A stretch of 64,000 nt of DNA from a virus, in the IMG/VR virus record IMGVR_UViG_3300032753_000003, positions 1 to 64,000 of that record, one strand, 5' to 3'. Below are positions 2,135 through 37,494 of the stretch, piece after piece. The translations under genes were made by a program, and so were the position numbers. How positions within the stretch are numbered: position 1 is the stretch's first letter; the number at the start of each line of letters is the position of its first letter. The notes below the pieces were generated by a model. That model searched no databases. It was not told the DNA's origin and saw only the letters and a list, made by a program, of their open reading frames with translations.

Positions 2135-3382
2135 CTAGAAACTAAACAAGCTATCAAAGCTGCTGTCATTCTTGCTGGCTTTGAGATCCCACTTGAGAAC
2201 GCCTAATAGGTTGTCTATCTTTTTGTCAATCAAAGCTTCTTCCATTGCATCATGATCAAATGGCAGGTCCTTAAACCAATGAGGTAGTGTAAGCTGATCT
2301 ACAGGATATGCTACACTGGTAATACCAGACGGATTTGGTTTAAGTTTACAAACAATAACCTTAGCACCGTCGCTGATTTCCATGCTGTAATGATCGTTAT
2401 AGATCTTCTTGAGTTTGTTCCAATTTAAGCTGGCTAACACGTGACCCGGTAACATGGTCTTTTTGGTAACAATGTTACTGATAGTTGTACTCTCCATCTG
2501 TTTCTGTAAGTGACTGTAATGCGTCATTTTGTTAGCACGCTTTGGAGATCCTTTTAGCCATGGATCCCAACTTCTAAACTGTTGACGGAAGTCAGCTATC
2601 TGTTGTATAGCTTCAGATTCTGTAGCACCCGTTAGCACCTTAACAAGTACATCACTCAAGAAGTCTTGCACCGATTTAGGAGTGTCCGATCGCTTGAGAT
2701 CCAATCCCATAGCTTTGATCTCACCCGGCTTACCATTTTGATCCTTGCGCTTGCCTTCCTTGTCAAATATAAGAACTGCATATCTCTTCTTGGTGATGAA
2801 CAATCCTTTTAGAGCGCACAGTTCTCTAGCTGCTTTGATGATAGCACCATTTTCTGGCGGACATCCAAACGCACGACCCATGAAGTCTGAGAAGCTAGCA
2901 TTGGTTAAGTCTGCTATCTTGTCATAGAGGTCAATTACGTTTTCTTTAGACCATTCATAGTCTTTGAAGTCTTCTTGATCCTTCATTACAGGGTATGCGG
3001 AGAAATATTGACTGTCTGTATCGGAATAAATGCATGCATCGCCAACATGGTCGTATTTTCCTGTAATAATTTCATTAATTTTAGATCCCATATGCTTAAC
3101 AATGCAACGACCACTCAGAGTGGTGCTCTGCGCAATACGTTGGTCAAACCATCTACTTCCGGGGTTAGCAATGCTCCCGTAAAGCGAATTTAATTTGATT
3201 TTTTCAATAAGTTGCCTTTGATCATAAAAGTCTCGTTGATATGTATAATATTTTTTGTTATTTGGAACTATTTTTCCGTTTTCTAATTTCAGATCAAACT
3301 CTTCCATATAAGCTTTTAACCCTACATAATCTTCTTTATTTAAAAAATCTTTTATAATTTCAATATCGTATTCTTTATCCAT
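2135..3382 (-). CDS. 43: DNA polymerase family B, C-terminal half (gp43B)
   Basis: 415 residues holding the palm motif B (KIKLNSLYGSIANP), motif C with the catalytic aspartates (YSDTDSQYF), the KKRYA motif and the thumb. It ends SFDSLFSF, close to the clamp-binding tail of T4 gp43. It lacks the exonuclease domain and motif A, which are on the separate N-half at 4323-5990, so the active enzyme must form from two polypeptides. It has its own ATG and Shine-Dalgarno (AGGA, about 10 bases upstream). The first 45 residues and their AT-rich DNA look unlike the rest and may derive from the insertion. It ends in TAG, which is clearly a true stop here because the clamp peptide is complete. Confidence 0.93.
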   Translation of the reverse strand: MDKEYDIEIIKDFLNKEDYVGLKAYMEEFDLKLENGKIVPNNKKYYTYQRDFYDQRQLIEKIKLNSLYGSIANPGSRWFDQRIAQSTTLSGRCIVKHMGSKINEIITGKYDHVGDACIYSDTDSQYFSAYPVMKDQEDFKDYEWSKENVIDLYDKIADLTNASFSDFMGRAFGCPPENGAIIKAARELCALKGLFITKKRYAVLIFDKEGKRKDQNGKPGEIKAMGLDLKRSDTPKSVQDFLSDVLVKVLTGATESEAIQQIADFRQQFRSWDPWLKGSPKRANKMTHYSHLQKQMESTTISNIVTKKTMLPGHVLASLNWNKLKKIYNDHYSMEISDGAKVIVCKLKPNPSGITSVAYPVDQLTLPHWFKDLPFDHDAMEEALIDKKIDNLLGVLKWDLKASKNDSSFDSLFSF

Positions 3383-3425: not shown

Positions 3426-4336
3426 ATGAATGATATGGTAAAATGCGAAATTTGTCAAAATTTATTTAGGAGAATAACTCGAACACATTTAAACAAGCAT
3501 AACATAACCACAGCTGAATACATCCTCTTATACCCTAATAGTAACTTGATATGCGAAAGTTTACTATACGAAACTGGAAAATATTTTAGAGAAAATAATC
3601 CAATGAAGGTTGAAGAGTTAAAAGAAAAAGTTGCGTCAGTTCATAGAGGGAAACCAAAATCTGAAGAACATAAACGTAAACTCAGCGATTCTCAGGTGGG
3701 AGAAAAAAGCCATATGTGGGGAAAGAAAAGACCAGAACATTCTGCCCATATGAAAGAAATTATGCCAAATATTATGAGAGAATATTATTCTGATGGAAAA
3801 CCGGGTCATAATAAAGGTAAAAAACTTAATTTAACTAACGAACAACGACAGGAAATGTCTAATAGAAATAAAGGTAAACGTAAATGGCCAAACGGTAATC
3901 CAAACAAAGGTAAAAAGTTAAATCTAAGTGATGAACAAAGAAGAAATAGATCTATTAAAAGTTCTAACTGGCTAAAATCTAATAAAATGAAAAATCTTAT
4001 ACAAACATAGAAATTTTATTTAAATCTTGGTGCGAATCACAAAATTTAATATATGAACATCAGTATATTCTTAATACTCCAAAGAACGCATGGGTTTATG
4101 ATTTTTATATACCTTCATTGAATATGTTAGTTGAACTAGATGGAGAATTTTGGCATTCTAAGAAAAAACAGATAAATAGAGATATTTTAAAAACAAATGC
4201 AGCGTATGATCAAAAATTCTTATTTTGTAGACTTTCATCAGATGATTTAAATTTTAACATGATTTATAAATCATCTGAAGAATTAAAACTACATAATCAT
4301 AATATAATAAACAATAGGTTATCTAAACATTTGTAA
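3426..4336 (+). pseudogene. Vsr-like (EDxHD-type) homing endonuclease with a single frameshift
   Basis: Sits between the two DNA polymerase halves on the opposite strand. The first frame (3426-4010) has a zinc-finger-like N-terminus (CEICQNLF...HLNKH), then NUMOD3-type DNA-binding repeats (GKPKSEEHKRKLSDSQ, NKGKKLNLS). The nuclease domain is in the -1 frame: KSYTNIEILFKSWC, WVYDFYIPS, LVELDGEFWH. The two frames join at a run of five A at 3990-3994; six A would restore one reading frame of about 300 codons. It therefore looks like a recently inactivated gene, a -1 slippage site or a sequencing error. A good Shine-Dalgarno (AGGAGTGA) precedes the start. The 3' end overlaps the polymerase N-half by 14 bases. 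Confidence 0.82.
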
Positions 4337-5990
4337 GTTTGTCAATTTGTTCTTGTGTTAACGTAACTCCGTCTGCTAATGCAGCATATTTTCTCATTGT
4401 TTTTTGCATCTCCTTGCGTTCAGCATACCACCGAGACAACACGCTGGGGATCAATCCAGGTTTGCTATAGTCAAATATAGTACCATTAGCACTTAGCGTT
4501 AATTTCTTACCGCTCTTGAAGATGAGATCATATACTTCCTTAGCTGTTACTACCGCTTCTGAACCGTCTTCAAAGTCAATCTTGAGAGGAGTGTTATTCT
4601 TCTCCATAACAGCTTGATATTCTAAGCTACCAAACACACTATTCCATGCATCTGCAAAGCTTTTCTTTTCTTGCTGTACTTTGATCTTGATAAATTGGTC
4701 AGTCATATCTGGACGAATCTGTCCCACAATGGTTTCTGCACTCATGTTGAGCGCACGAATGGTGCTGGGATATAGACTGTTGATGTCAACACCGCCAATC
4801 CAATCGTGCATACCAGGTTTTGGATCTGCAACATATGCACCAACCACTGAGCCGCCCATTTCAGTTTCTTCTGCCCAACGAGCTTCCTTCTCTTCTTCAG
4901 TTTCTCGTATTCTGGTTGGTACCATTAGACCTAGATCATGTGCAGCATTTACAATTGCTTGATCAATTAGTGCAACAGCGCCCATAGTAGTCTGCAACAG
5001 AACACAATTGGTATGTGCGATGTTATTGGCTAGATCAATGAACTTTAGTTTGGCATCGATCTTTACCAACAGCAAAACGTCCTGTCGGTTATATTCTATG
5101 AACTTCTTAAAATCGCTGTTATACAGTTGATCTAGAGTGCCTTCATACTGCGTCTTCTTCTCCTTAACCTCATACTCGCCCACGAAGTCAAGTCTATAAC
5201 TATGCATCTCGTGGTAGGTATGCTTGCGATACAATTGCAAATAATCCAAGTGTACACGTCCAACTAGATCATATGTTACAGTCTCGCGACCATATGATTC
5301 ATATTCACGCTTCTTAGGATATTTGCCCCAAAGGCATAGCTTGCGAGTTTCGTCCTTGCCTAGCACCTCTACAATACGATTGTGAATGTAGGGAATATCA
5401 AAGCCCTCTGAGTTCCAACCTGACAATATGTCGCAGTCTTCAATCAATTCTAGAAACACGCTTAGCAACTGCTTTTCGTTATCGCAAAGGACTGTGTCCT
5501 CAAATTCATCAACAATGGCCTGTGCTGCGGCTTGACTCATAGCTTTTGGCTTAAGCACAAGCGTAAAATTACGCTCTAGCCAATTTAAGTACACGCTAAT
5601 TGCTGTTATAGGTGAGAATGCGTCATCGGGGCTGCTAAAACCTCTAGCCGGATCAAAATCCGTTTCAATATCGAAGAACCCTATGTGCAAATTGGGGCTT
5701 GGTTGATCTTTATAGTGATCATACAAGCATCTGAAGATAGGATTGATATCTGTTTCGTGTAGCTTACTCTTGGGTATGAGCCCAAGTTCGCGCTGGAACT
5801 CTTTAATCTTTGTAGTTTGAAATTTTTCTAGCTTAATTCCAAATATACTTGTAGCTTTGCCCTTTTCGCTGGGCCAATATGCTACGTATTTTGTTGGGTG
5901 TGTAACAAGTAATCTTTTACCGTTTTTATCTCGTTCAGCAACAAGAATAAGATTCTTCTCGCGTTCACAAATTGCATCCACATAACTCAT
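4323..5990 (-). CDS. 43: DNA polymerase family B, N-terminal half (gp43A)
   Basis: 555 residues with the N-terminal domain, the 3'-5' exonuclease (Exo I FFDIETDF, Exo II GWNSEGFDIPYI, Exo III YNRQDVLLL) and palm motif A (DINSLYPSTIRALNMS). It stops at LTQEQIDKLTNV in the fingers, before motif B, which is on the separate gene at 2135-3382. The break therefore lies between motifs A and B. T4-like Aeromonas phage 25 is known to have a gp43 split by a homing gene in a comparable way. No intein blocks are visible at either break, so the halves probably associate non-covalently. The start is the ATG after AAAAGGTAGTAAA. Confidence 0.95.
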   Translation of the reverse strand: MSYVDAICEREKNLILVAERDKNGKRLLVTHPTKYVAYWPSEKGKATSIFGIKLEKFQTTKIKEFQRELGLIPKSKLHETDINPIFRCLYDHYKDQPSPNLHIGFFDIETDFDPARGFSSPDDAFSPITAISVYLNWLERNFTLVLKPKAMSQAAAQAIVDEFEDTVLCDNEKQLLSVFLELIEDCDILSGWNSEGFDIPYIHNRIVEVLGKDETRKLCLWGKYPKKREYESYGRETVTYDLVGRVHLDYLQLYRKHTYHEMHSYRLDFVGEYEVKEKKTQYEGTLDQLYNSDFKKFIEYNRQDVLLLVKIDAKLKFIDLANNIAHTNCVLLQTTMGAVALIDQAIVNAAHDLGLMVPTRIRETEEEKEARWAEETEMGGSVVGAYVADPKPGMHDWIGGVDINSLYPSTIRALNMSAETIVGQIRPDMTDQFIKIKVQQEKKSFADAWNSVFGSLEYQAVMEKNNTPLKIDFEDGSEAVVTAKEVYDLIFKSGKKLTLSANGTIFDYSKPGLIPSVLSRWYAERKEMQKTMRKYAALADGVTLTQEQIDKLTNV

Positions 5991-6048
5991 TTTACTACCT
6001 TTTCTACCGCTTAATGGCCGGCTAACCTTACTACATACTAACTTTACG

Positions 6049-7041
6049 TTAGCGTTGCATATTTAAATATGCACTACTAGTATACCATTGATAAGCGTCA
6101 GAAACAACTTTATCAAGGTCATGTATTGGCGCCCAACCTAACTCTTTATGTATTTTAGTGACATCTGCTATACGCCACGCAGGGTCACCCGAGCGTCTTG
6201 GACCTTCAACAGTCTTTACCTTTTTACCAGTAACTCGTTCAACTGCTGACAGTATATCAAGCACACTATATCCTGAACCACTACCAATATTATACACATA
6301 ATGTCCAGGACTATTAATAAGCCAGGATATACCCATAACATGCGCTACAGCTATATCATTTACGTGTACGTAATCTCTTACACAGGTTCCGTCCTTAGTA
6401 GGCCAATCAGTACCGTTAATAACAAACTCTGTGTCTGCTAACAAACAATCCATAACCCTTGCAATAACGTGTGATGCGTTAGGCAACTGGCCTAAGTTCA
6501 ACTTTGGTGATGCTCCTACAGCATTGAAGTATCTAAATGCAATACTATTGATACCGTATGCTGTAAAGTAATCACCTAGTATCATTTCACCAGCTTGCTT
6601 AGTCCTACCATATGGACTGATAGGGTTAAGCAACTCTGTTTCATTTGACAGAGTTACACCATCGCCGTCTCCGTATACGCTGCTACTTGAACTAAAAATC
6701 ACATTGTTGTGCTTATTATCGCGCAAGTGATTCATAAATTTCAATAAGCTGCATACGTTGTTATCGTAATACTTTGCAGGATTGTTTACACTAGGCGTTA
6801 CAAGACTAGAAGCTGCGCAATGTATAATTGCAAGTGGCTTCACAACATCAATGACATCTAATGCTAACTTGCTTGCATAATCATCATTTACAATTTCATC
6901 TGCAAATGCGTGAGTATGCGGAGCTAATGCTGCATTTTGATCAATGACAAGCGTCTTGTACTTTGTGTCTCGCTTTAAGGAGGCTGCGATATGACTACCT
7001 ACGTATCCGGCGCCGCCTGTAACTACAATCCATTCACTCAT
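6049..7041 (-). CDS. galE: UDP-glucose 4-epimerase
   Basis: 330 residues of the extended short-chain dehydrogenase family, the usual GalE length. It shows the NAD-binding GGAGYVGSH, the catalytic Ser/Tyr/Lys set (SSSSSVYGD, SPYGRTKQAGE), RYFNAVGA and VRDYVHVNDIAVAH. It interconverts UDP-glucose and UDP-galactose (or N-acetyl forms) in the cytoplasm. The start overlaps the stop of the DsbA-like gene (ATGA). In a phage it most likely supplies sugars for the glycosyltransferases at 1-714 and possibly 11481-12317. Confidence 0.95.
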   Translation of the reverse strand: MSEWIVVTGGAGYVGSHIAASLKRDTKYKTLVIDQNAALAPHTHAFADEIVNDDYASKLALDVIDVVKPLAIIHCAASSLVTPSVNNPAKYYDNNVCSLLKFMNHLRDNKHNNVIFSSSSSVYGDGDGVTLSNETELLNPISPYGRTKQAGEMILGDYFTAYGINSIAFRYFNAVGASPKLNLGQLPNASHVIARVMDCLLADTEFVINGTDWPTKDGTCVRDYVHVNDIAVAHVMGISWLINSPGHYVYNIGSGSGYSVLDILSAVERVTGKKVKTVEGPRRSGDPAWRIADVTKIHKELGWAPIHDLDKVVSDAYQWYTSSAYLNMQR

Positions 7042-7313
7042 TTAGACTTGCCGACTGCCATCAAGACTTCTTCAACTGCGTCTAGCTCTTCACGACCTTC
7101 TTCAAGTTCGTCGCGGTTTTCGCCCATCTTAACAGCTACCTTGATAGCTTTTGTCAAGACGTTCTTTGGAATTTCCATCTCCTCACTGATAGCTGCAATG
7201 ACTTCTGCAAGACCTTCCTTGAGATTCTTGATATCGTTTGTGACCTGAACACCCTGATTGATTAGGTCCTTAAGCTTGACCTTGTCGCTTTCGCTAACTG
7301 CACCGATACCCAT
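7038..7313 (-). CDS. DsbA-like dsDNA-binding late transcription protein
   Basis: 91 residues, nearly the 89 of T4 DsbA, a small protein that binds late promoter DNA. It shares the layout of an N-terminal helix with a KDLINQG-like start, a central INKLKEG-type helix, the segment VLTKAIKVAVKMGENRDE matching the T4 region around LLALYHKDNRD, and a final acidic helix. A Shine-Dalgarno (AAGGAG) precedes the ATG and its stop overlaps the galE start. The promoter at 7345-7373 lies upstream. The homology is judged by eye and could be checked by profile search. Confidence 0.62.
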   Translation of the reverse strand: MGIGAVSESDKVKLKDLINQGVQVTNDIKNLKEGLAEVIAAISEEMEIPKNVLTKAIKVAVKMGENRDELEEGREELDAVEEVLMAVGKSK

Positions 7314-7344
7314 GTTGATGCTCCTTGTTTGTTGTTAATATAAC

Positions 7345-7373
7345 AGTTTATTTGTAGCTGCGGGTATTGTCAA
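7345..7373 (-). promoter_or_regulatory. Sigma70-type promoter, TTGACA-17-TAAACT
   Basis: Minus-strand -35 TTGACA at 7368-7373 and -10 TAAACT at 7345-7350, spacer 17, upstream of the DsbA-like gene and galE. The same -10 hexamer and spacing recur at 14951-14979. Confidence 0.5.
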
Positions 7374-7374
7374 C

Positions 7375-9495
7375 TCAAGGCAATATGGCAAAATCGTACA
7401 TTTGGATATTATTGTTTTGTCCAATCCATGTCACAGTATCAGTACTGGTGAAATAGGTATAGGTAGTTAACAAACTGCGTACACCTACTACCCAGTGATC
7501 TATGTACCATATAACACTTATGAACTGATAACCAGGAGCTTCAAATCTATTCCAGATAGCACCATCTAAGCTGTAATAGATTAATCCGCTGCTGACAGCA
7601 ACTATATGACCGCTGGGATTGGTAGCAATTTTGGTAAAATTTGGGCTTGCATAATTAGCAGTAACATAATCTGTACCGCCCCATTGAGGATTTATGAGAC
7701 TGGGAGTATACAAGATATAACCGTATGCTGCGATGTAAAAATTACTGTTGCTATATGTTATATCAAAGAACTGATTATTGTTAAAGATTTCTGGTACATT
7801 AACTCTATCCCAACTTGTACCATCATCTAAACTATACAATAGAACTGGATTACCATTAGATGATCCGCACACTACCCAAACATCTGGATAACTCCAATTG
7901 AACGTAGTAGTATCTGTTATAGCAAATGTTACATATCCTTGAATTTCAAACGTCCATGTGGTTCCGTTGTTTACAACTCCTATAATATTGAATGGTACAT
8001 TTGGCAAAGAGGAGAATGTTACAGTTCCAACTGATTGGCTGGGATTATTTGTGATCAAATCAGCTAATTCTGATAGAAACGGATTGCTAGATTGATCAAC
8101 AGTTACTTCATTTGTTCCTGAGCCTGATTGTATTGGATATGTAATTACCTGTGCTGGTAATATAGCGAATCTCTTAACTCCGTAGTATCTGCTATCGTTA
8201 CTGTTTTCTGCATATACCATAGTCCAACTATCTTCAAATCCTGGATCTGCAATGGTATCGCTGTCGCTGACAAATATTTGAGCTACCTCATCAAATTGAT
8301 TGTGACTGGGTTCATTATTAGCATATTTTTGGCTACCAACTATCATAAAAGTACTGTTATTGCCGTTTTGATTTGTACCTTGAGATATAGCATATGGAGA
8401 GAAATTACCAAATAATATGCTACCGTTAGACCATATTATGCCATCATAACTGCTGCTCACATATCCACTGTCAGATATAGCAGTTATGGTTTGTTGTACA
8501 GTATTAATAGTACTGGTTATGATAACACCACCGCTGCCTACTGCTACAAATGTATTGAAGTGCTTGTTGTATGCTACTCCGTTTAGATTTGCAACAAACC
8601 TAGTATTATCTTGATACCAAGATATTCCATCTTGACTTCTCAATATACTATTATTAAGGCCAACTGCGACTATCTCAGTTAATCCCCAAGTAACTGAAAG
8701 TAGATCTGTTGATATACCAGTAGCAGATATACTCCAATTAACGCCATCTAAACTGGTTATAGCTACACCAGCAGAGCCTACTGCTACATACCGTGTACCT
8801 GTCCAACAAATTCCATAAAGATTTGCAGTTGTTATTCCATTTTCATAACTAGACCAAGTTAATCCGTCTGTACTAGTGCAAATAGTTCCGTTGTTACCTA
8901 CTGCTAAAAATTCTGATCCATTCCATGTTACGGAATTTAAGCTGTATAGAGAGTTCGATGCGATAAATCTCCAATTTTCAGAATCCAACGATATAATTAA
9001 GATCCCATCTGTTCCCACTGCAACAAACATAGTTAACTCTGAAGACCAACACACACTTAGCAATCTCTCGCTTGATCTTAATGATATCAAATTCCAATTT
9101 ACAGCGTCTGTACTGTTTAATACTACACCTGAATCGGCTACAACAACATAATTGGTATTAGATGCAATTACAGAATTGAGATTATATAACACTCCGCTGG
9201 TTTGAGGTATCCAATCATTACCGTCTGTGCTGGTATATATGTATCCGTTTGAGCCAACAGCTATAAACCTATCATATGCCCATGCTACACCATTGAATGT
9301 TGTAACAGTTCCGTTTGACCTAACTATCCAAGGAATATCAGTAGCACACGCTATACCAACACCCTGTTGTCTAGGCAAGAAGGGTTGAGTTATAGCATCA
9401 GTTGAGCTCCACTCGTAACCATCGGGACTTGTTGTAAAGCCGCTCACAGTCACCATGCGATCGTATATTTGTCCTATAGCTAATAATGTGCTCAA
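7375..9495 (-). CDS. Beta-propeller-like repeat protein, candidate tail fibre or adhesin
   Basis: 706 residues built from at least seven degenerate repeats of about 40 residues with the core AVGSNGYIYTSTDGNDW (variants AVGTDGILIISLDSENW, AVGNNGTICTSTDGLTW, AVGSAGVAITSLDGVNW). These are BNR/Ycf48-like blades. Later parts (about 330-706) contain weaker blades, ending YTYFTSTDTVTWIGQN. It is rich in Asn, Ser, Thr and Tyr, has almost no Lys and has no signal peptide, as is typical of phage fibre or baseplate ornament proteins. Receptor or glycan binding is inferred from architecture only. A small gene (9500-9718) precedes it in the same orientation. Confidence 0.65.
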   Translation of the reverse strand: MSTLLAIGQIYDRMVTVSGFTTSPDGYEWSSTDAITQPFLPRQQGVGIACATDIPWIVRSNGTVTTFNGVAWAYDRFIAVGSNGYIYTSTDGNDWIPQTSGVLYNLNSVIASNTNYVVVADSGVVLNSTDAVNWNLISLRSSERLLSVCWSSELTMFVAVGTDGILIISLDSENWRFIASNSLYSLNSVTWNGSEFLAVGNNGTICTSTDGLTWSSYENGITTANLYGICWTGTRYVAVGSAGVAITSLDGVNWSISATGISTDLLSVTWGLTEIVAVGLNNSILRSQDGISWYQDNTRFVANLNGVAYNKHFNTFVAVGSGGVIITSTINTVQQTITAISDSGYVSSSYDGIIWSNGSILFGNFSPYAISQGTNQNGNNSTFMIVGSQKYANNEPSHNQFDEVAQIFVSDSDTIADPGFEDSWTMVYAENSNDSRYYGVKRFAILPAQVITYPIQSGSGTNEVTVDQSSNPFLSELADLITNNPSQSVGTVTFSSLPNVPFNIIGVVNNGTTWTFEIQGYVTFAITDTTTFNWSYPDVWVVCGSSNGNPVLLYSLDDGTSWDRVNVPEIFNNNQFFDITYSNSNFYIAAYGYILYTPSLINPQWGGTDYVTANYASPNFTKIATNPSGHIVAVSSGLIYYSLDGAIWNRFEAPGYQFISVIWYIDHWVVGVRSLLTTYTYFTSTDTVTWIGQNNNIQMYDFAILP

Positions 9496-30307: not shown

Positions 30308-30580
30308 TCATCCAAACCTCAACGCAAATTCTATCTGCTGTTCTATAGTCCTAAACCACCACCTAGCATCGGCGCCCACCGTCCCTGGTGCCATAAAATC
30401 TACCATAGGGATCCAACCCTGTGTCTCGCACCATTCTCGCTTTTGATAGCGATCTAGACAAAGTACCTGGTATTCCTGGCTTGAACCTAATCCCTCTGTA
30501 CAGGGCTCTGGCACCTTGACTCCCATACCGTGAGCAGTGAAGATTACGTCTTTGGTAGCTGGATCTCGCAATGTTATCAT
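30308..30580 (-). CDS. FxLxW-family protein, 90 aa
   Basis: TGATG-coupled start. Core KREWCETQGWIPMVDFM, then ARWWFRTIEQQIEFALRFG. The N-terminal half (TLRDPATKDVIFTAHGMG, LCLDRY) looks like an added strand-rich domain. Confidence 0.66.
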   Translation of the reverse strand: MITLRDPATKDVIFTAHGMGVKVPEPCTEGLGSSQEYQVLCLDRYQKREWCETQGWIPMVDFMAPGTVGADARWWFRTIEQQIEFALRFG

Positions 30581-31044
30581 CACAGCCACCTCAGCTTGAA
30601 CAACATAGCATGTTCAGGTGTAAATGGCCAAGTGATATGGTTTTCGGCTAACCATTGTTCAACTGAATCAGTAATGTTGTTGTTATTGATCCACCACGCT
30701 AGACGGCCATCCGACCAAATAATTGCAGGTCCGTCGGCCCGATGGTGTTGACCATCGCAATACCATTCTTGTCGGCCGTTTTGGTAGATAACAGCAGGCC
30801 CGTCTGTGCGATGCAGCTGACCATTGCGATACCATCGCTGATCGACATTTGGATATATCATAGCAGGTCCGTCCTCGCGGTGCAGCTTGCCATCGTGATA
30901 CCATCCCTGATATCCATCTGGATATATGATCGCAGGTCCATCCTCGCGATGCAGCTGACCTGCACTATTGCGCCACTGACCCTCGGCGTTTTGCCACCTG
31001 TTGATGCCATTTTCTCCCACAACAAAGGTTGACTCGTCTGTCAT
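30580..31044 (-). CDS. LHREDGPA-repeat protein with FxLxW C-terminus, 154 aa
   Basis: ATGA-coupled start at 31044. It contains four MORN/YwqK-like repeats of about 22 residues (GQLHREDGPAIIYPDG, GKLHREDGPAMIYPN, GQLHRTDGPAVIYQNG, GQHHRADGPAIIWSDG) followed by VEQWLAENHITWPF and the family end TPEHAMLFKLRWL. It is thus a fusion of two modules. 115 bases of the repeat region are almost identical to DNA in the gene at 48690-49673. LHREDGPA repeats are known from bacteria, phages and giant viruses, without assigned function. Confidence 0.75.
   Translation of the reverse strand: MTDESTFVVGENGINRWQNAEGQWRNSAGQLHREDGPAIIYPDGYQGWYHDGKLHREDGPAMIYPNVDQRWYRNGQLHRTDGPAVIYQNGRQEWYCDGQHHRADGPAIIWSDGRLAWWINNNNITDSVEQWLAENHITWPFTPEHAMLFKLRWL
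30862..30976 (-). repeat. 115-bp inverted duplicate of 49256-49370
   Basis: The reverse complement of this segment matches 49256-49370 at 114 of 115 positions (one A/G difference). It encodes the first LHREDGPA repeats in both genes; identity stops abruptly on both sides. Confidence 0.9.
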
Positions 31045-31454
31045 AGCCACCTCAGCGTGAACAACATACAATCGTGATCATTTTTGAACCAAAGTATACC
31101 GTTATCAAATACGTATCCAGAGTTGCCAAACTGCTGATTACACCATGCGATACAATCCATATCTTGATCAAATGCGGTAAAATTACATGGCACATATGGA
31201 TATTTTGCTTGGAGAAAGTCATTAACAGTTTGACTCTTCTTGCGATTGTTCAAACGCAGAAACACTCGGTAATGCATCGCAGTCATCTTGATGCGCGGAT
31301 AGTACCTATACCTCATGAATGTAGATCCGCTAGGACCGATCATTGACTGTACGCCAATTATCGAATTGGCTATGATAGTGGGCATAACTTGCCTGATTAC
31401 AGGAATCAATACCGAGTTTGGAGGTATAGTACCAGATAATAAACCTGTTGTCAT
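31041..31454 (-). CDS. FxLxW-family protein with long N-terminal domain, 137 aa
   Basis: ATGA-coupled start at 31454. The N-terminal half contains YRVFLRLNNRKKSQTVNDFL, shared with the truncated gene at the right edge of the window (YKVFVRLNNRRKTQGIEDFI), so the two are direct paralogues. Then CIAWCNQQFGNSGYVFD and ILWFKNDHDCMLFTLRWL. Confidence 0.72.
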   Translation of the reverse strand: MTTGLLSGTIPPNSVLIPVIRQVMPTIIANSIIGVQSMIGPSGSTFMRYRYYPRIKMTAMHYRVFLRLNNRKKSQTVNDFLQAKYPYVPCNFTAFDQDMDCIAWCNQQFGNSGYVFDNGILWFKNDHDCMLFTLRWL

Positions 31455-31687
31455 GCCCATCTCAATTTAAACAGCACAGCATGGTCATGACTTTCAAACT
31501 CCCCTACTGTTGTAACTTTGGAGTTGGGATTTAGATCATTATACCACACTCGCCAATTGGGACCTATCAATCCAATTGGAAGATATCTGCCCATGATATC
31601 CAACTGCACCGGTCCTCCCATATTCTCAATTAACCAAGGTTCCATATGGTCGAGATGCGTGAACGGTATAACAACTTTATAAGTCAT
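31451..31687 (-). CDS. FxLxW-family protein, 78 aa
   Basis: ATGA-coupled start. MEPWLIENMGGPVQLD takes the place of the WC motif; the end is TTVGEFESHDHAVLFKLRWA. Confidence 0.68.
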   Translation of the reverse strand: MTYKVVIPFTHLDHMEPWLIENMGGPVQLDIMGRYLPIGLIGPNWRVWYNDLNPNSKVTTVGEFESHDHAVLFKLRWA

Positions 31688-31902
31688 AGCCATGTCAAGA
31701 TGAACTCAGTTTTGCAATTCGCGTGTCTGAATACGAATCCAGCTACAAGTAGATCCCATTCTCCATTTGGGTTAGTATTAGAGATAGCAGCGCCCCACTT
31801 CTCATGGCACCACAGGCGCATACGCATTAATGAGTGATAATCATCAAATGCACCTTGCACTAGATGTAATTCCTCGCCCCGATATGTGATTGTTGATCCC
31901 AT
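31684..31902 (-). CDS. FxLxW-family protein, 72 aa
   Basis: Core LMRMRLWCHEKWGAAISN, end AGFVFRHANCKTEFILTWL. The start ATG follows the previous stop by one base. Confidence 0.68.
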   Translation of the reverse strand: MGSTITYRGEELHLVQGAFDDYHSLMRMRLWCHEKWGAAISNTNPNGEWDLLVAGFVFRHANCKTEFILTWL

Positions 31903-31903
31903 A

Positions 31904-32098
31904 TTATACCCAAGCTAATTTAAACATCATAGCAAATTCGTAATCATAAAATTCAAAACACAATCTATTGCTCCAATAGAACCAATAGAAGTCAACGGTA
32001 TGAACAAGACCGCGGTCTTCGCACCAACAAGTTGCATCTACAGCCAATTGGTCTGTGATATTGCTTCTACCTCTGTGTTCAAACTTCACAACAACCAT
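31904..32098 (-). CDS. FxLxW-family protein, 64 aa
   Basis: Core VDATCWCEDRGLVHTVDFYW and end CFEFYDYEFAMMFKLAWV. First intact member of the array, downstream of the amber-interrupted copy at 32126-32287. Confidence 0.67.
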   Translation of the reverse strand: MVVVKFEHRGRSNITDQLAVDATCWCEDRGLVHTVDFYWFYWSNRLCFEFYDYEFAMMFKLAWV

Positions 32099-32382: not shown

Positions 32383-32415
32383 CCCACATTGTTAATATAT
32401 ACGGAGGAAATAATT

Positions 32416-33246
32416 ATGTCAATGATATTGTGTGCATATGGGTGTGGAAATGTTGCAATATATTTCAATCGGCAACAAGTAGGTAGATGTTCATTTAGGC
32501 CTAGCGTTTGTGAAGGTATACGCGCCCGCGCCAAACAATCTATCAAAAATAGATACGCATCAAAAACTGAAGAAGAGAAACAGTTAATTAAAAATCGCAG
32601 GTTAGCAACAAATATTAAAAAATATGGTGTTGCTAATGTATCTTCAGTTGAATCAGTTAAACTTAAAAAAGAACAAACTTTTTTAGACAAGTTTGGTACT
32701 ACTAACCCGTCCCAAAACACAGATATACGCGCAAAAATTAAAGATAAGATGCCTGTAGTTCTTAAGAAACGTAAAAAAACTAATTTAGATAGATATGGAG
32801 TTGAGCACTACTCTAGTACAGAGGAATTTAAATCTAGACGTAAAATAACCTGGACCAAAAGATACGGAGCAGATAATCCAAGTAAAAATAATAATATCAA
32901 AGACAAAATTATGAAAGGACAGGATCATAGAAGAACTAACAAGATAATTATTTTAAATGGACAAATTGTTAGAGTACAAGGTTATGAAGATCAAGTTATA
33001 CGAGATTTAATAAAATCTGGAATTTCAGAATCTGAGATAATATGTGATAGGGATAGGATACCAAAGATATCATATACCATAGATAATAAAGTTAGAACCT
33101 ATTACCCTGATATATATCTTCCTAGATATAACATTTTGATAGAAGTTAAATCGTTATACACTTGGAAGAAATATAAGGCTATTAATATTGCTAAAATTAG
33201 TTCTGCTAAACATGCAGGATATAATGTACGTGTGGCTATACGTTAG
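32416..33246 (+). CDS. PD-(D/E)XK-type homing endonuclease
   Basis: 276 residues; start at 32416 after GGAGGA. N-terminal Cys-containing segment (LCAYGCGN...GRCSF), then three or four repeated DNA-binding motifs of the type KKYGVANVSS, KFGTTNPSQN, RYGVEHYSS and RYGADNPSK, and a C-terminal PD-(D/E)XK nuclease (YYPDIYLPRYNILIEVKS). The KYGxxNPSQ repeats also occur in the ligase-intein endonuclease at 34189. It is encoded opposite to, and overlaps by four bases, the 3' end of the ligase C-part, so it seems to be inserted next to its presumed target. Confidence 0.85.
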   Translation: MSMILCAYGCGNVAIYFNRQQVGRCSFRPSVCEGIRARAKQSIKNRYASKTEEEKQLIKNRRLATNIKKYGVANVSSVESVKLKKEQTFLDKFGTTNPSQNTDIRAKIKDKMPVVLKKRKKTNLDRYGVEHYSSTEEFKSRRKITWTKRYGADNPSKNNNIKDKIMKGQDHRRTNKIIILNGQIVRVQGYEDQVIRDLIKSGISESEIICDRDRIPKISYTIDNKVRTYYPDIYLPRYNILIEVKSLYTWKKYKAINIAKISSAKHAGYNVRVAIR

Positions 33247-34187
33247 ATCTTTTGTCCCGGGTCAAATCCTCTAAATGCAACAAATACAGGAAACCTCAAA
33301 CTATACGTATCAGAGTTCTGATTCTGTGTGAGACAGTCTCCCTTAATTTCAACAATTTGGCCAATTACCTGATCTTGGTTGTTCCAGATCTGATCACGCA
33401 GCTCTTCAGTATAACCGCCACCTACAGTAACTTCAATGATCTTACCTTGATCTTCTCCTCGGCAGATTAGACCACCTAATGTATTTTTGAACTTACTCTC
33501 TGGTTTGCCAGGTTCAACTCCGATAACTTCTAAATCTACAGAATATACCGGTTTAATTTTCAACCAGGCATCTGTACGTTTAGTCTTATATGTGGCATTA
33601 GGGTCCTTGATCATAATTCCTTCTAGTCCTTGGCTTAACGTGTCGTTGTTGAATTCCTTGAACTGCTTCTGACCCTCAGGAGTCTCTAGATCCACAGCCA
33701 TCTTGGGAATAACATACACGCGCTCGCCACAATGCTCTGCCAGCAGCGGCACAAATCCAGTCAACACTTCATGCCGCTGAGTCTGAGTCAGCAGGCATTC
33801 ACCTGCAACAAAGTCCTTGAGCGGGACAATATCAAACAGTGCCAGCTTGGCATCGGAGGTGTCAACATCCTCTTTGCGATTCAGCTGCTTCATCAAAGAT
33901 TGGAAACTGCGGCTGACCATTTCGCCGTCAAACACCACGCTCTGTTTGAGCTTGGGTAGCAGCTTGGCCATTGATGCCGCAATAGTCTCAAAACGATCGT
34001 TCTGCCTACCATCGCGACTGTATTGAGTAACAGTGTTGTTCTCAACATCGAGGATGGTGATCATTCGGCAGTTGTGGACGAGCACATTGTTTGCAAAGAA
34101 ATTACTGACATCATCTACCTCCAGATCGTACCGATCGAGGTTGACATCTAACTCTTCAATCCTGGATATTGCCGCTATGTTTTTCAT
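33243..34187 (-). CDS. 30: DNA ligase C-terminal part with C-intein (split intein)
   Basis: 314 residues. Residues 1-39 are a C-terminal split intein (MKNIAAISRIEEL, RYDLEVDDVSNFFANNVLVHN with the terminal Asn), ending at the splice site HN/C. The C-extein begins CRMITILDV, i.e. directly after ligase motif I, and carries motif III (VVFDGEMVS), IIIa (LALFDIVPL), IV (EGIMIKDPN), V (DAWLKIKP) and the OB-fold region. Start taken at 34187, just behind the endonuclease stop. It needs the N-part at 35135-35968 to form a working ATP-dependent ligase of about 446 residues (T4 gp30: 487). Confidence 0.92.
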   Translation of the reverse strand: MKNIAAISRIEELDVNLDRYDLEVDDVSNFFANNVLVHNCRMITILDVENNTVTQYSRDGRQNDRFETIAASMAKLLPKLKQSVVFDGEMVSRSFQSLMKQLNRKEDVDTSDAKLALFDIVPLKDFVAGECLLTQTQRHEVLTGFVPLLAEHCGERVYVIPKMAVDLETPEGQKQFKEFNNDTLSQGLEGIMIKDPNATYKTKRTDAWLKIKPVYSVDLEVIGVEPGKPESKFKNTLGGLICRGEDQGKIIEVTVGGGYTEELRDQIWNNQDQVIGQIVEIKGDCLTQNQNSDTYSLRFPVFVAFRGFDPGQKI

Positions 34188-34188
34188 G

Positions 34189-35070
34189 TTACTCTGTCTT
34201 TCTGGTAAAGGTATTATATAACATCTTGGTGATGTCGTCAAACGATTTCTTTATATCATTCTCCCATAACACAATTACCTTTACACCAAATGATTCTATA
34301 TGAGATTGTCGATGACTATCAATGTCCCATATTTCTTGGGCGGTAGTTAGGCCAATGAACAGATGTATCACATCGCTAGCATAATATATGTTAGGGTTTG
34401 CGTGCCAATAATCCCCGTATATTTCAATCACTGTATTGTAAGCGTCTATCCAAATATCAACTATAGGCGAATATATGCGATTGTTAGCCGCAACAGGTTT
34501 AGGAAATAGGTTAGGCTTCTCGTTTTCATGTTCGATACCAACCGAGGTCAACCAGTTTGATATCTTTCTATGAGGTACAGACAGAGTTGTGTTGCCGCGA
34601 TACCTCGGAAGATATCTGGCATTGGTCACACCATAATTTATAAACATAGTGTCTTTAATTTTAGAAATAATTTCGGGTCTCTGGGATGGGTTATCGACAC
34701 CATATCGTTCTCGGCTGACCGATAGCTTTCTATCTTTAACATGTTGCGACTGCGATACATTGTCCACACCATACGTGTTTCTCACTGTTTCTTTATATTT
34801 CTGCCTTGTTTCCGGGGATCTTGCAGCATCCTTTATCGATAAAGTCTTTACGCCTCTGATTCTACACCAATCACGTAACCAGTCGCCGCTGATTTTCTGA
34901 CCAGCCCATTGTATGCTAGTTGTCTGCAAGCCATAAATGCTTCGACGCTCTATCATCAACCATTGTATCAGTTCTTTTTCAAATGGTTCCAGCTTTTTTT
35001 GGGCTTTCATAGTCCTGCATTCATGTGTGACACTGATGTTTGATTTCCGACAATAGATGCATTCTGTCAT
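34189..35070 (-). CDS. Vsr-like homing endonuclease between the ligase intein halves
   Basis: 293 residues from ATG 35070 (AGAGG upstream). A TTG start at 35163 inside the N-part is possible but less likely. N-terminal zinc finger (CIYCRKSNISVTHEC), repeats NTYGVDNVSQS, RYGVDNPSQR and NYGVTNARYL, then the nuclease core YSPIVDIWIDAYNTVIEIYGDYWHANP with the EDxHD-like IEIYGDYWH. Vsr-like enzymes in this position are known from fractured genes with split inteins in environmental phages. It lies between the N- and C-intein genes on the same strand, so all three are probably one transcript. Confidence 0.88.
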   Translation of the reverse strand: MTECIYCRKSNISVTHECRTMKAQKKLEPFEKELIQWLMIERRSIYGLQTTSIQWAGQKISGDWLRDWCRIRGVKTLSIKDAARSPETRQKYKETVRNTYGVDNVSQSQHVKDRKLSVSRERYGVDNPSQRPEIISKIKDTMFINYGVTNARYLPRYRGNTTLSVPHRKISNWLTSVGIEHENEKPNLFPKPVAANNRIYSPIVDIWIDAYNTVIEIYGDYWHANPNIYYASDVIHLFIGLTTAQEIWDIDSHRQSHIESFGVKVIVLWENDIKKSFDDITKMLYNTFTRKTE

Positions 35071-35134
35071 TGGCAACCTCTTGTAATTGACAAGAGTATT
35101 TATGCTAGATTCGAAACTAGACGGCGTATATCCA

Positions 35135-35968
35135 TCATGTATCTTGCAACAGTTTATCGCCAATCATCAATAAATCAACTCGTCTCCAACATTTTAATAG
35201 GGGTAACCAAACCAGATGATTTCCAGTCAAAGGTGGCAGCATATTCCCATTTTCAAGCGTTATTCTGTACCATTTAACCGATGTGTCGTTGATATCAGAA
35301 CCGTTCTTTGCCCAATTAAGTATCTTATTGTATTCTATTTTGCCGGTAGATGGATTAAATGATTTGATCCTACCTTCTATGCGGTTTTCAACTACTTCAG
35401 CGATAGTCACACGTCGACCGTCTTCAAACTCAATGGTCCAGCTTGCTGATAAACAGCCGTCCAGCTTGGGATCCAGCAGTTTGATACCAGACAACTTCTT
35501 GGGATGGTCCTCACCATTCTTGGCCAACTGGCAGCTGAATACAGGGATAATGTAATCAACCGCGCCAACCTTCTCGAGAATCTTGTTGATGGTTGCTTCA
35601 GTGACACCGCACTTGAGATCCTTGAGTAGAATTCTACGATACCAACTGTTCCAATCCTTGACTGAACTTGCGTCAGCAGCAGCACGCAGCACATCGCGGG
35701 CACTGTTACCAGTAAGCTCGCGATGCTGTAGCTTGTGAGCAATGTCCTTGAACTTGGTCCAATTCATAGTGGATTTGAAGTTGGGATCGTCAGCGCCTTC
35801 GATCAGCGGAACCTTCTTGACTCCAAATGTAACGAGAGCATCATAGGCCATCTTGGCGCCTTCAAAGAACTCTGTACAGCCTGCATCCCAGGCGGCACGG
35901 ATAATACTCTCCTTGTCCAAACGGCCGCTGGTAGATTCAAGTTTGGCAATGATGTCTGCGGGGGTCAT
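35135..35968 (-). CDS. 30: DNA ligase N-terminal part with N-intein (split intein)
   Basis: 277 residues. Residues 1-171 are the N-terminal domain of a T4-type ligase ending in the active-site motif I LLDPKLDG (catalytic Lys168). From Cys172 on, an N-intein of 106 residues follows: CLSASWTIEFEDGRR (block A) and LTGNHLVWLPLLKCW (block B-like with the conserved His). The extein break is therefore directly after KLDG, the most conserved point of the enzyme, as is usual for inteins. The N-part alone lacks catalysis, so trans-splicing is required. Confidence 0.92.
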   Translation of the reverse strand: MTPADIIAKLESTSGRLDKESIIRAAWDAGCTEFFEGAKMAYDALVTFGVKKVPLIEGADDPNFKSTMNWTKFKDIAHKLQHRELTGNSARDVLRAAADASSVKDWNSWYRRILLKDLKCGVTEATINKILEKVGAVDYIIPVFSCQLAKNGEDHPKKLSGIKLLDPKLDGCLSASWTIEFEDGRRVTIAEVVENRIEGRIKSFNPSTGKIEYNKILNWAKNGSDINDTSVKWYRITLENGNMLPPLTGNHLVWLPLLKCWRRVDLLMIGDKLLQDT

Positions 35969-37012: not shown

Positions 37013-37237
37013 TTATTGCCAAACCAACTTGAAGGCAACAAAATCGCTACGCTTTTCAAATCTCACAGTATATTTTCCTAACTTGTAACTGCCTGTACAA
37101 TTGCTATGGCACCAATTCATAGCTTGAGCACGACTATGGTCATCAGAGAAGTTTAAATATTCCACAAACGGCATTTCATGTGTGAGATTTGCATCTTGTA
37201 TAACTTCCAACACAGGACCTAAAATTGAGTATGTCAT
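37013..37237 (-). CDS. FxLxW-family protein, 74 aa, isolated copy
   Basis: TGATG-coupled start. Core AQAMNWCHSNCTGSYKLG, end YTVRFEKRSDFVAFKLVWQ. It lies outside the main array among early genes. Confidence 0.68.
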   Translation of the reverse strand: MTYSILGPVLEVIQDANLTHEMPFVEYLNFSDDHSRAQAMNWCHSNCTGSYKLGKYTVRFEKRSDFVAFKLVWQ

Positions 37238-37494
37238 CAATAAGGGCCCCAGCTGCGATCTGCTGCAATCTCTTCAAACGTAAACGATCCGCCTTGGCGA
37301 TCCACTTGTCCTGCCCAGCTAGAATTTGAACTTTTGAGCTTGGCAATCTCGTCCTTGAGAGCTGCAATCTCACGGTTCTTAGCGTCAAATGCCTGAGCGA
37401 TGATTTCAGCAACACGGTCATGACCATACAAGTCGCCGTGGATATCAGCGCGAATATCCTCTTGAATTAACTGTTGGATTTCAAATTGGTCCAT
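37237..37494 (-). CDS. Hypothetical coiled-coil protein, 85 aa
   Basis: MDQFEIQQLIQEDIRADIHG, then a heptad-like helix (AKNREIAALKDEIAKLKSS), then an acidic tail. Upstream AGGAGCAGGTA serves as ribosome site. Function unknown. Confidence 0.58.
   Translation of the reverse strand: MDQFEIQQLIQEDIRADIHGDLYGHDRVAEIIAQAFDAKNREIAALKDEIAKLKSSNSSWAGQVDRQGGSFTFEEIAADRSWGPY

What the first reader, a model, noticed from the sequence alone, without database searches (positions are those of the whole stretch)
33243..35968. DNA ligase broken by a split intein exactly after the catalytic KLDG, with a Vsr-like endonuclease between
The N-part ends its ligase sequence at KLDG and continues as an N-intein starting with Cys. 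The C-part starts with a 39-residue C-intein ending VHN and continues CRMITILDV. A Vsr-like homing endonuclease gene lies between. This is the fractured-gene layout known from environmental phage sequences for helicase, NrdA/NrdJ and IMPDH genes; a ligase example may be new. The enzyme would be inactive until trans-splicing, tying ligation to protein splicing. The very short C-intein would be of practical interest as a fast split intein.
Basis: partly seen in the sequence, partly recalled or inferred. Interest (0 to 1): 0.85.

Follow-up and report, generated by a model that had tools for sequence, protein, structure and literature searches.

The report
Mobile split-intein cassette in phage ligase
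In this bacterial virus the gene for DNA ligase is cut in two, exactly at the active site, by a mobile element that encodes a split intein (predicted to join the two protein halves again) and a DNA-cutting enzyme that spreads it; near-identical copies in otherwise different viruses show that the whole element has jumped recently.

Summary
On the minus strand an ATP-dependent DNA ligase is encoded in two ORFs broken after the catalytic KLDG. The N half continues into a 106-aa Int-N, a 293-aa Vsr/EDxHD-type endonuclease gene follows, and the C half starts with a 39-aa Int-C ending VHN|C. All class-1 intein residues are present; the predicted product is 446 aa. Of 77 related intact ligases, 76 read KLDG-V and one KLDG-A; all ten fractured ones read KLDG-C. 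The window's 1,385-bp cassette is 99.7% identical to one in another virus whose ligase exteins are only 66-76% identical. A second such group exists, and the ligase tree forces at least six gains or losses. The unit moves as one piece between phages. New here: the endonuclease carries a T4-late-promoter-like box and, in every cassette lineage, an inverted repeat at its start, as in T4 I-TevI. It is a member of the known 'fractured gene' class; I could not establish whether a ligase was among the enzyme types of the 2009 survey. A 39-aa Int-C is ordinary, not 'very short'. Splicing itself remains untested. The same virus has a clamp loader in three pieces with two split inteins.

The parts
35456..35968 (-). 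DNA ligase N-extein, 171 aa, from MTPADII to the adenylation motif I KLDG
   Evidence: phrog_114 E=2e-21; 60-79% aa identity to near relatives, alignment ending at the same residue
35135..35455 (-). Int-N, 106 aa plus stop; Cys1, block B TGNH
   Evidence: TIGR01445; model's Foldseek matches led by Npu DnaE split intein, probability 1.00
35096..35104 (-). T4-late-promoter-like box CATAAATAC upstream of the endonuclease
   Evidence: TAAATA 16-28 nt before the endonuclease ATG in 7 of 7 cassettes examined, ATAAATA in 6 of 7; not enriched across the window
35078..35096 (-). [quoted passage not shown]
   Evidence: inverted repeats at this start in six cassette lineages, different sequences, combined p=1e-6; control starts p=0.94
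34189..35070 (-). homing endonuclease, 293 aa: Cys-bearing N-terminus, DUF7487-type repeats, C-terminal Vsr/EDxHD nuclease domain
   Evidence: PF24308; AlphaFold model pLDDT 81; VIA-align Z 12.5 to Vsr 1cw0, 11.2 to I-Bth0305I 3r3p
34071..34187 (-). Int-C, 39 aa, blocks F and G, ending VHN
   Evidence: TIGR01443 over cut-off; alignment of 8
33243..34070 (-). DNA ligase C-extein, 275 aa plus stop, beginning with the +1 Cys; carries motifs III (FDGE), IV (EGIMIK) and V (WLKIK)
   Evidence: PF01068 E=1.7e-16, DNA_ligase_OB_2; phrog_114 E=1e-57; alignment of 14

Best explanation
A phage ATP-dependent DNA ligase gene has been invaded, immediately after the nucleophile motif KLDG, by a 1.385-kb mobile cassette made of Int-N, a free-standing Vsr/EDxHD homing endonuclease gene and Int-C. 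Proposed working: (1) the two halves are translated as separate proteins (shown by ORFs); (2) Int-N and Int-C associate and, by the class-1 pathway (Cys1, TxxH, HN, Cys+1), excise themselves and join the exteins into a 446-aa ligase reading KLDGCR (inferred from complete residues and long conservation); (3) the endonuclease cuts uninterrupted ligase alleles near the KLDG codons during mixed infection and repair copies in the whole cassette with short flanks, including the +1 Cys codon (transfer shown by sequence; cutting inferred); (4) the endonuclease is held back in read-through messages by a hairpin at its ribosome-binding site and made from its own late-type promoter (inferred from anatomy, as in T4 I-TevI). 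The element is chiefly selfish and persists because only precise loss restores the ligase.
For: Layout and residues. Empty sites: 76 of 77 intact ligases KLDG-V, one KLDG-A, versus Cys in 10 of 10 fractured. Transfer: the cassette of window and L027 is 1381/1385 identical while exteins are 76.4% and 66.4%, flanks are unrelated and L027 extein G+C is 0.61-0.63 against 0.39-0.42 in the cassette. L028 versus L029: cassette 99.9%, exteins 70-71%; versus L030-L032: 98%, exteins 70-73%. Identity extends 24 nt upstream and 17 nt downstream of the insertion in window/L027, and about 50 nt downstream in L028/L029. The ligase tree forces at least six changes of state. Function kept: window/L027 exteins dN 0.14-0.18 with dS above 1.2 or saturated; L034 and L137 are both fractured, with exteins (58-62% aa) and cassette (54-76% aa) diverged together while all frames stay open. 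No other ligase detected in the 199,865-base record. Folds. Control elements.
Against: No splicing, cleavage or expression data exist. The Int-N profile match is below its curated cut-off and the Int-N model is only moderate (pLDDT 69). A T4-type late box is not enriched in the window, so it may not be a promoter in this phage; two of the six hairpins (L028, L033) do not make the start site clearly more open in the late message. The virus record may be incomplete, so a second ligase cannot be excluded.
Confidence: 0.9

Rival explanations
1. The halves are not joined covalently: they assemble as two subunits, as the split NrdA of phage Aeh1 and the split DNA polymerase gp43 of phage 25 do.
For: Phages do tolerate split enzymes without splicing (PMC2988022); this very virus has a DNA polymerase in two ORFs with no intein found.
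Against: All splice residues are conserved in nine aligned Int-N and eight aligned Int-C sequences down to 58% and 44% identity, which non-covalent assembly would not require; the break lies next to the nucleophile Lys.
Confidence: 0.05
2. A recently broken, non-functional ligase or an assembly artefact.
For: Only one ligase was found and the record is a virus record assembled from environmental DNA.
Against: Same layout in 11 other contigs from other samples; strong purifying selection and open frames; catalytic motifs I, III, IV, V intact.
Confidence: 0.02
3. The split is mainly a control device: the ligase is inactive until the halves meet, and the late promoter inside the cassette times production of the C half.
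For: The C-part ATG is 1 nt behind the endonuclease stop, so a late message from the box would also carry the C half.
Against: Patchy presence among close relatives and cassette exchange fit a selfish element; nothing shows that splicing is conditional.
Confidence: 0.1
4. The interruption is a group I intron carrying an EDxHD endonuclease, removed from RNA.
For: EDxHD endonucleases do live in group I introns (own knowledge of the 2009 survey; related ones in group II introns, PMC12350094).
Against: No group I or II intron match by Rfam; protein intein motifs on both sides in frame.
Confidence: 0.01

Closest known systems
Fractured genes of Dassa et al. 2009 (gp41 helicase, NrdA, NrdJ, IMPDH and others; doi 10.1093/nar/gkp095)
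   Same: Enzyme of DNA metabolism broken by a split intein, free-standing Vsr-type endonuclease gene in between, in phage-like DNA (from own knowledge of the abstract)
   Different: Host gene and site: ATP-dependent DNA ligase after KxDG. Recent whole-cassette transfer between diverged phages is shown here by sequence. I could not read the paper to see whether a ligase is listed.
AceL NrdHF split class 3 intein (PMC7891396)
   Same: Fractured-gene layout with endonuclease between the halves; Int-N 98 aa and Int-C 48 aa against 106 and 39 here
   Different: Class 3 and GIY-YIG endonuclease there; class 1 and Vsr/EDxHD endonuclease here
PolB split intein of Pseudomonas phage MIJ3 (PMC6892783)
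   Same: Split intein with endonuclease gene in a phage replication gene
   Different: DNA polymerase B and HNH endonuclease
I-Bth0305I / E. coli Vsr endonuclease (3r3p, 1cw0)
   Same: Predicted nuclease domain superposes: Z 11.2 and 12.5
   Different: N-terminal part with DUF7487-type repeats; target not determined
T4 I-TevI and Aeh1 MobE expression control (PMC2988022)
   Same: Late-type promoter next to the endonuclease plus RNA hairpin at its start
   Different: Endonuclease of another family, inside a split-intein gap; promoter and hairpin only predicted
Haloarchaeal ATP-dependent DNA ligase intein (PMC4071816)
   Same: Intein in an ATP-dependent DNA ligase gene
   Different: Found there in one halobacterial genome and not described as split in the passages read; insertion site not compared here

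Membership tests
Fractured gene (split-intein locus with free-standing endonuclease) | One enzyme in two ORFs, each ending or starting in the matching intein half | tested here: met
Fractured gene (split-intein locus with free-standing endonuclease) | Separate endonuclease gene between the halves | tested here: met
   in all fractured loci examined
Fractured gene (split-intein locus with free-standing endonuclease) | Uninterrupted homologues with the exact empty site | tested here: met
Class 1 split intein | Cys1, block B TxxH, C-terminal HN, Cys/Ser/Thr at +1 | tested here: met
   C1, T77-G-N-H80, H38-N39, C+1 invariant
Class 1 split intein | HINT fold | tested here: met
   Foldseek best matches all inteins, Npu DnaE probability 1.00, E 5e-4; the superposition is good only over residues 1-48, Z 6.5; sequence match of the joined halves to the Spl DnaX mini-intein E=5e-6
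Class 1 split intein | Trans-splicing activity | not testable with these tools
   needs co-expression
EDxHD/Vsr-type homing endonuclease | Vsr-like nuclease fold | tested here: met
EDxHD/Vsr-type homing endonuclease | Conserved acidic and His residues of the nuclease domain | tested here: met
   D205, E216, W222-H223, R254, E270, D272 invariant in 8
EDxHD/Vsr-type homing endonuclease | Cuts the empty allele | not testable with these tools
   needs purified enzyme
Mobile (homing) cassette | Near-identical element at the same site of diverged host genes, ends at the junction, flanking co-conversion | tested here: met
ATP-dependent DNA ligase | Motif I KxDG plus motifs III-V and OB domain in the joined product | tested here: met
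I-TevI-like late control of the endonuclease | Late promoter whose message lacks an RNA hairpin covering the start site | tested here: inconclusive
   box 7 of 7, inverted repeats p=1e-6; gain in openness of the start in the late message computed for 4 of 6 lineages; no expression data

The most novel reading that the evidence does not exclude
A first fractured DNA ligase, and a self-contained mobile unit that brings its own late promoter and RNA hairpin switch. Every phage it invades then makes the endonuclease, and much of the ligase C half, late; ligase assembly becomes timed by the parasite and depends on protein splicing.
Probability: 0.25. Interest if true: 0.68.

Novelty: new member of a known kind. 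Interest (0 to 1): 0.56.

Why it matters
It gives a very clear natural record of homing by a split-intein cassette: nearly the same 1.4 kb in phages whose ligase genes otherwise share about 70% of bases, with conversion tracts readable to the base. It places a split intein directly behind a catalytic lysine, so splicing can be read out by ligase activity. It supplies six natural Int-N/Int-C lineages at one site for split-intein engineering. With the clamp loader of the same virus (one intein continuous in a relative, split here) it bears on how split inteins arise.

Tried and rejected
Group I/II intron: no Rfam match. Contiguous intein at the same ligase site: none among 77 intact and 10 fractured sequences; apparent extension of phage Sundance and Lumi ligase hits into Int-C proved to be ordinary intact ligases of 434 and 413 aa. 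Cassette in cultured phages: Int-N only 27-35% to inteins in UvsX, DNA polymerase and RNA ligase genes, of which two looked at (UvsX, RNA ligase) are single ORFs. Cassette in bacterial or archaeal genomes: none. Global enrichment of the late box in the window: none, 33 found against 32 expected. dS is saturated for most pairs, so only dN and the relative divergence were used. Literature: no paper found in the library describes a split-intein DNA ligase, but the library holds only open-licence papers and lacks the key 2009 survey.

Full report
OBSERVATION. The window is bases 1-64000 of a 199,865-base virus record. On the minus strand three ORFs follow each other closely: 35968-35135, 35070-34189 and 34187-33243. 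The first encodes 171 aa of ligase ending LLDPKLDG and goes on as CLSASWTIEFEDG... for 106 aa. The last begins with a 39-aa segment ending ANNVLVHN and goes on as CRMITILDV... to the end of a ligase. The joined exteins are 446 aa and match a solved ATP-dependent DNA ligase (6rau) almost from end to end, E=3e-105. Motifs I (KLDG), III (FDGE), IV (EGIMIK) and V (WLKIK) are intact.

INTEIN. Int-C passes the curated intein C-terminal model and Int-N matches the N-terminal model below cut-off. The joined halves match the Spl DnaX mini-intein (E=5e-6) and NrdJ-1 (E=0.005) among solved structures. Across nine aligned Int-N and eight aligned Int-C sequences, Cys1, block B TGNH, the final His-Asn and the +1 Cys are invariant. 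An AlphaFold model of Int-N (pLDDT 69) has inteins as all its best Foldseek matches, led by the Npu DnaE split intein; the superposition is good over residues 1-48. Int-C of 38-40 aa is the rule here, so it is not unusually short.

ENDONUCLEASE. The middle gene gives a model of pLDDT 81. Its C-terminal domain superposes on Vsr (Z 12.5, 2.8 A over 113 residues) and on the homing endonuclease I-Bth0305I (Z 11.2) (Foldseek). The N-terminal part has DUF7487-type repeats. Conserved acidic and histidine residues are kept in eight aligned copies.

EMPTY SITES AND RELATIVES. Scans of viral contigs gave 77 distinct intact ligases in which the alignment runs through the site without an insert; +1 is Val in 76 and Ala in one, while ten distinct fractured ligases (window included) have Cys. 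The fractured layout was found in 11 further contigs, always with the endonuclease, never as a continuous intein. The intact set is the nearest part of a larger family, not a census.

MOBILITY. Window and L027 share 1381 of 1385 cassette bases; the exteins on either side are 76.4% and 66.4% identical and the flanking genes are unrelated. L027's exteins are 61-63% G+C, the cassette 39-42%. Identity runs 24 nt into the N-extein and 17 nt into the C-extein, counted from the insertion. L028 and L029 share a 99.9% identical cassette with 70-71% exteins, and about 50 nt of downstream identity; both are 98% identical in the cassette to L030-L032 with 70-73% exteins. In a tree of 87 ligases the fractured state needs at least six changes on well-supported branches. 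The unit moves as a whole and recently. The +1 Cys codon travels with it, which explains why every host has Cys there.

FUNCTION KEPT. The exteins of window and L027 show dN 0.14-0.18 against dS above 1.2 or saturated. L034 and L137, both fractured, have diverged in exteins and cassette alike with all frames open. No second ATP- or NAD-dependent ligase was detected in the record, though the record may be incomplete. These facts favour working trans-splicing; splicing itself was not tested.

CONTROL ELEMENTS. Near the Int-N stop and before the endonuclease ATG, TAAATA occurs 16-28 nt before the ATG in all seven cassettes examined and ATAAATA in six, like the T4 late promoter TATAAATA (own knowledge). 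At the same place lies an inverted repeat, different in sequence in each of six cassette lineages, whose 3' arm covers or adjoins the ribosome-binding site or start codon. Against dinucleotide shuffles the combined p is 1e-6, while ten other gene starts of the same loci give 0.94; the motif and region were chosen after seeing the sequences, so these numbers are indicative. In most lineages a message starting just after the box would lose the 5' arm. T4 I-TevI, SegB and Aeh1 MobE are arranged like this (PMC2988022). Folding gives a gain in start-site openness for window, L034, L035 and L137, not for L028 and little for L033. I treat this as likely but unproven.

WHAT IT IS. A member of the fractured-gene class in a DNA ligase, with new evidence of current mobility. 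Whether ligase is among the published types could not be checked. Regulation of ligase by splicing is possible but not supported by evidence beyond the layout.

ELSEWHERE IN THE SAME VIRUS. A clamp-loader ATPase lies in three ORFs with two split inteins at Walker A (GIGK|T) and Walker B (LDE|C), with an endonuclease gene in each gap. In relative L147 the Walker A intein is continuous while the Walker B one is split: one intein, continuous in one phage and split by an endonuclease gene in another. The DNA polymerase is also in two ORFs, with no intein found.

Noticed in passing
L049 (G000:C1:188000-199865), 4326-8779, outside the window: Clamp-loader ATPase (gp44/RFC-like, phrog_168) in three ORFs: 4326-4586 with a 33-aa short Int-N after GIGK, 6073-6987 with a long Int-C and a second Int-N after VMLDE, 8045-8779 with Int-C ending LLTHN. 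Endonuclease genes of 500 and 337 aa fill the two gaps.
   Followed up: partly
L147 3794-4903 against L049 4326-6987: The Walker A clamp-loader intein is continuous (160 aa, cis) in L147 but split by an endonuclease gene in the window's virus: a direct before/after pair for the origin of an atypical split intein (short Int-N, long Int-C).
   Followed up: partly
window 2135-3382 and 4323-5990 (-): Family B DNA polymerase encoded in two ORFs with no intein motifs found; remnants of an endonuclease gene lie between on the other strand (3426-4010, 4118-4336 +), similar to split gene 43 of Aeromonas phages.
   Followed up: partly
window 32389-33246 (+): A second DUF7487-type endonuclease (PF24308 E=8e-43) converges on the ligase; its stop overlaps the ligase stop by 4 bases.
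   Followed up: no
window 30580-32098 (-), 37013-37240 (-): A series of short ORFs ending in similar tails (..LFKLRWL..LFTLRWL..FKLVWQ); one (31041-31460) carries a 40-residue piece of the T4 major capsid family Gp23 (PF07068 E=7e-9), the only Gp23 match in the record.
   Followed up: no
L035 4362-4664 and 4677-5324 (-): A partial second copy of the ligase N-extein lies about 1 kb upstream of the fractured ligase, next to an ORF on the other strand that looks like a GIY-YIG endonuclease.
   Followed up: no
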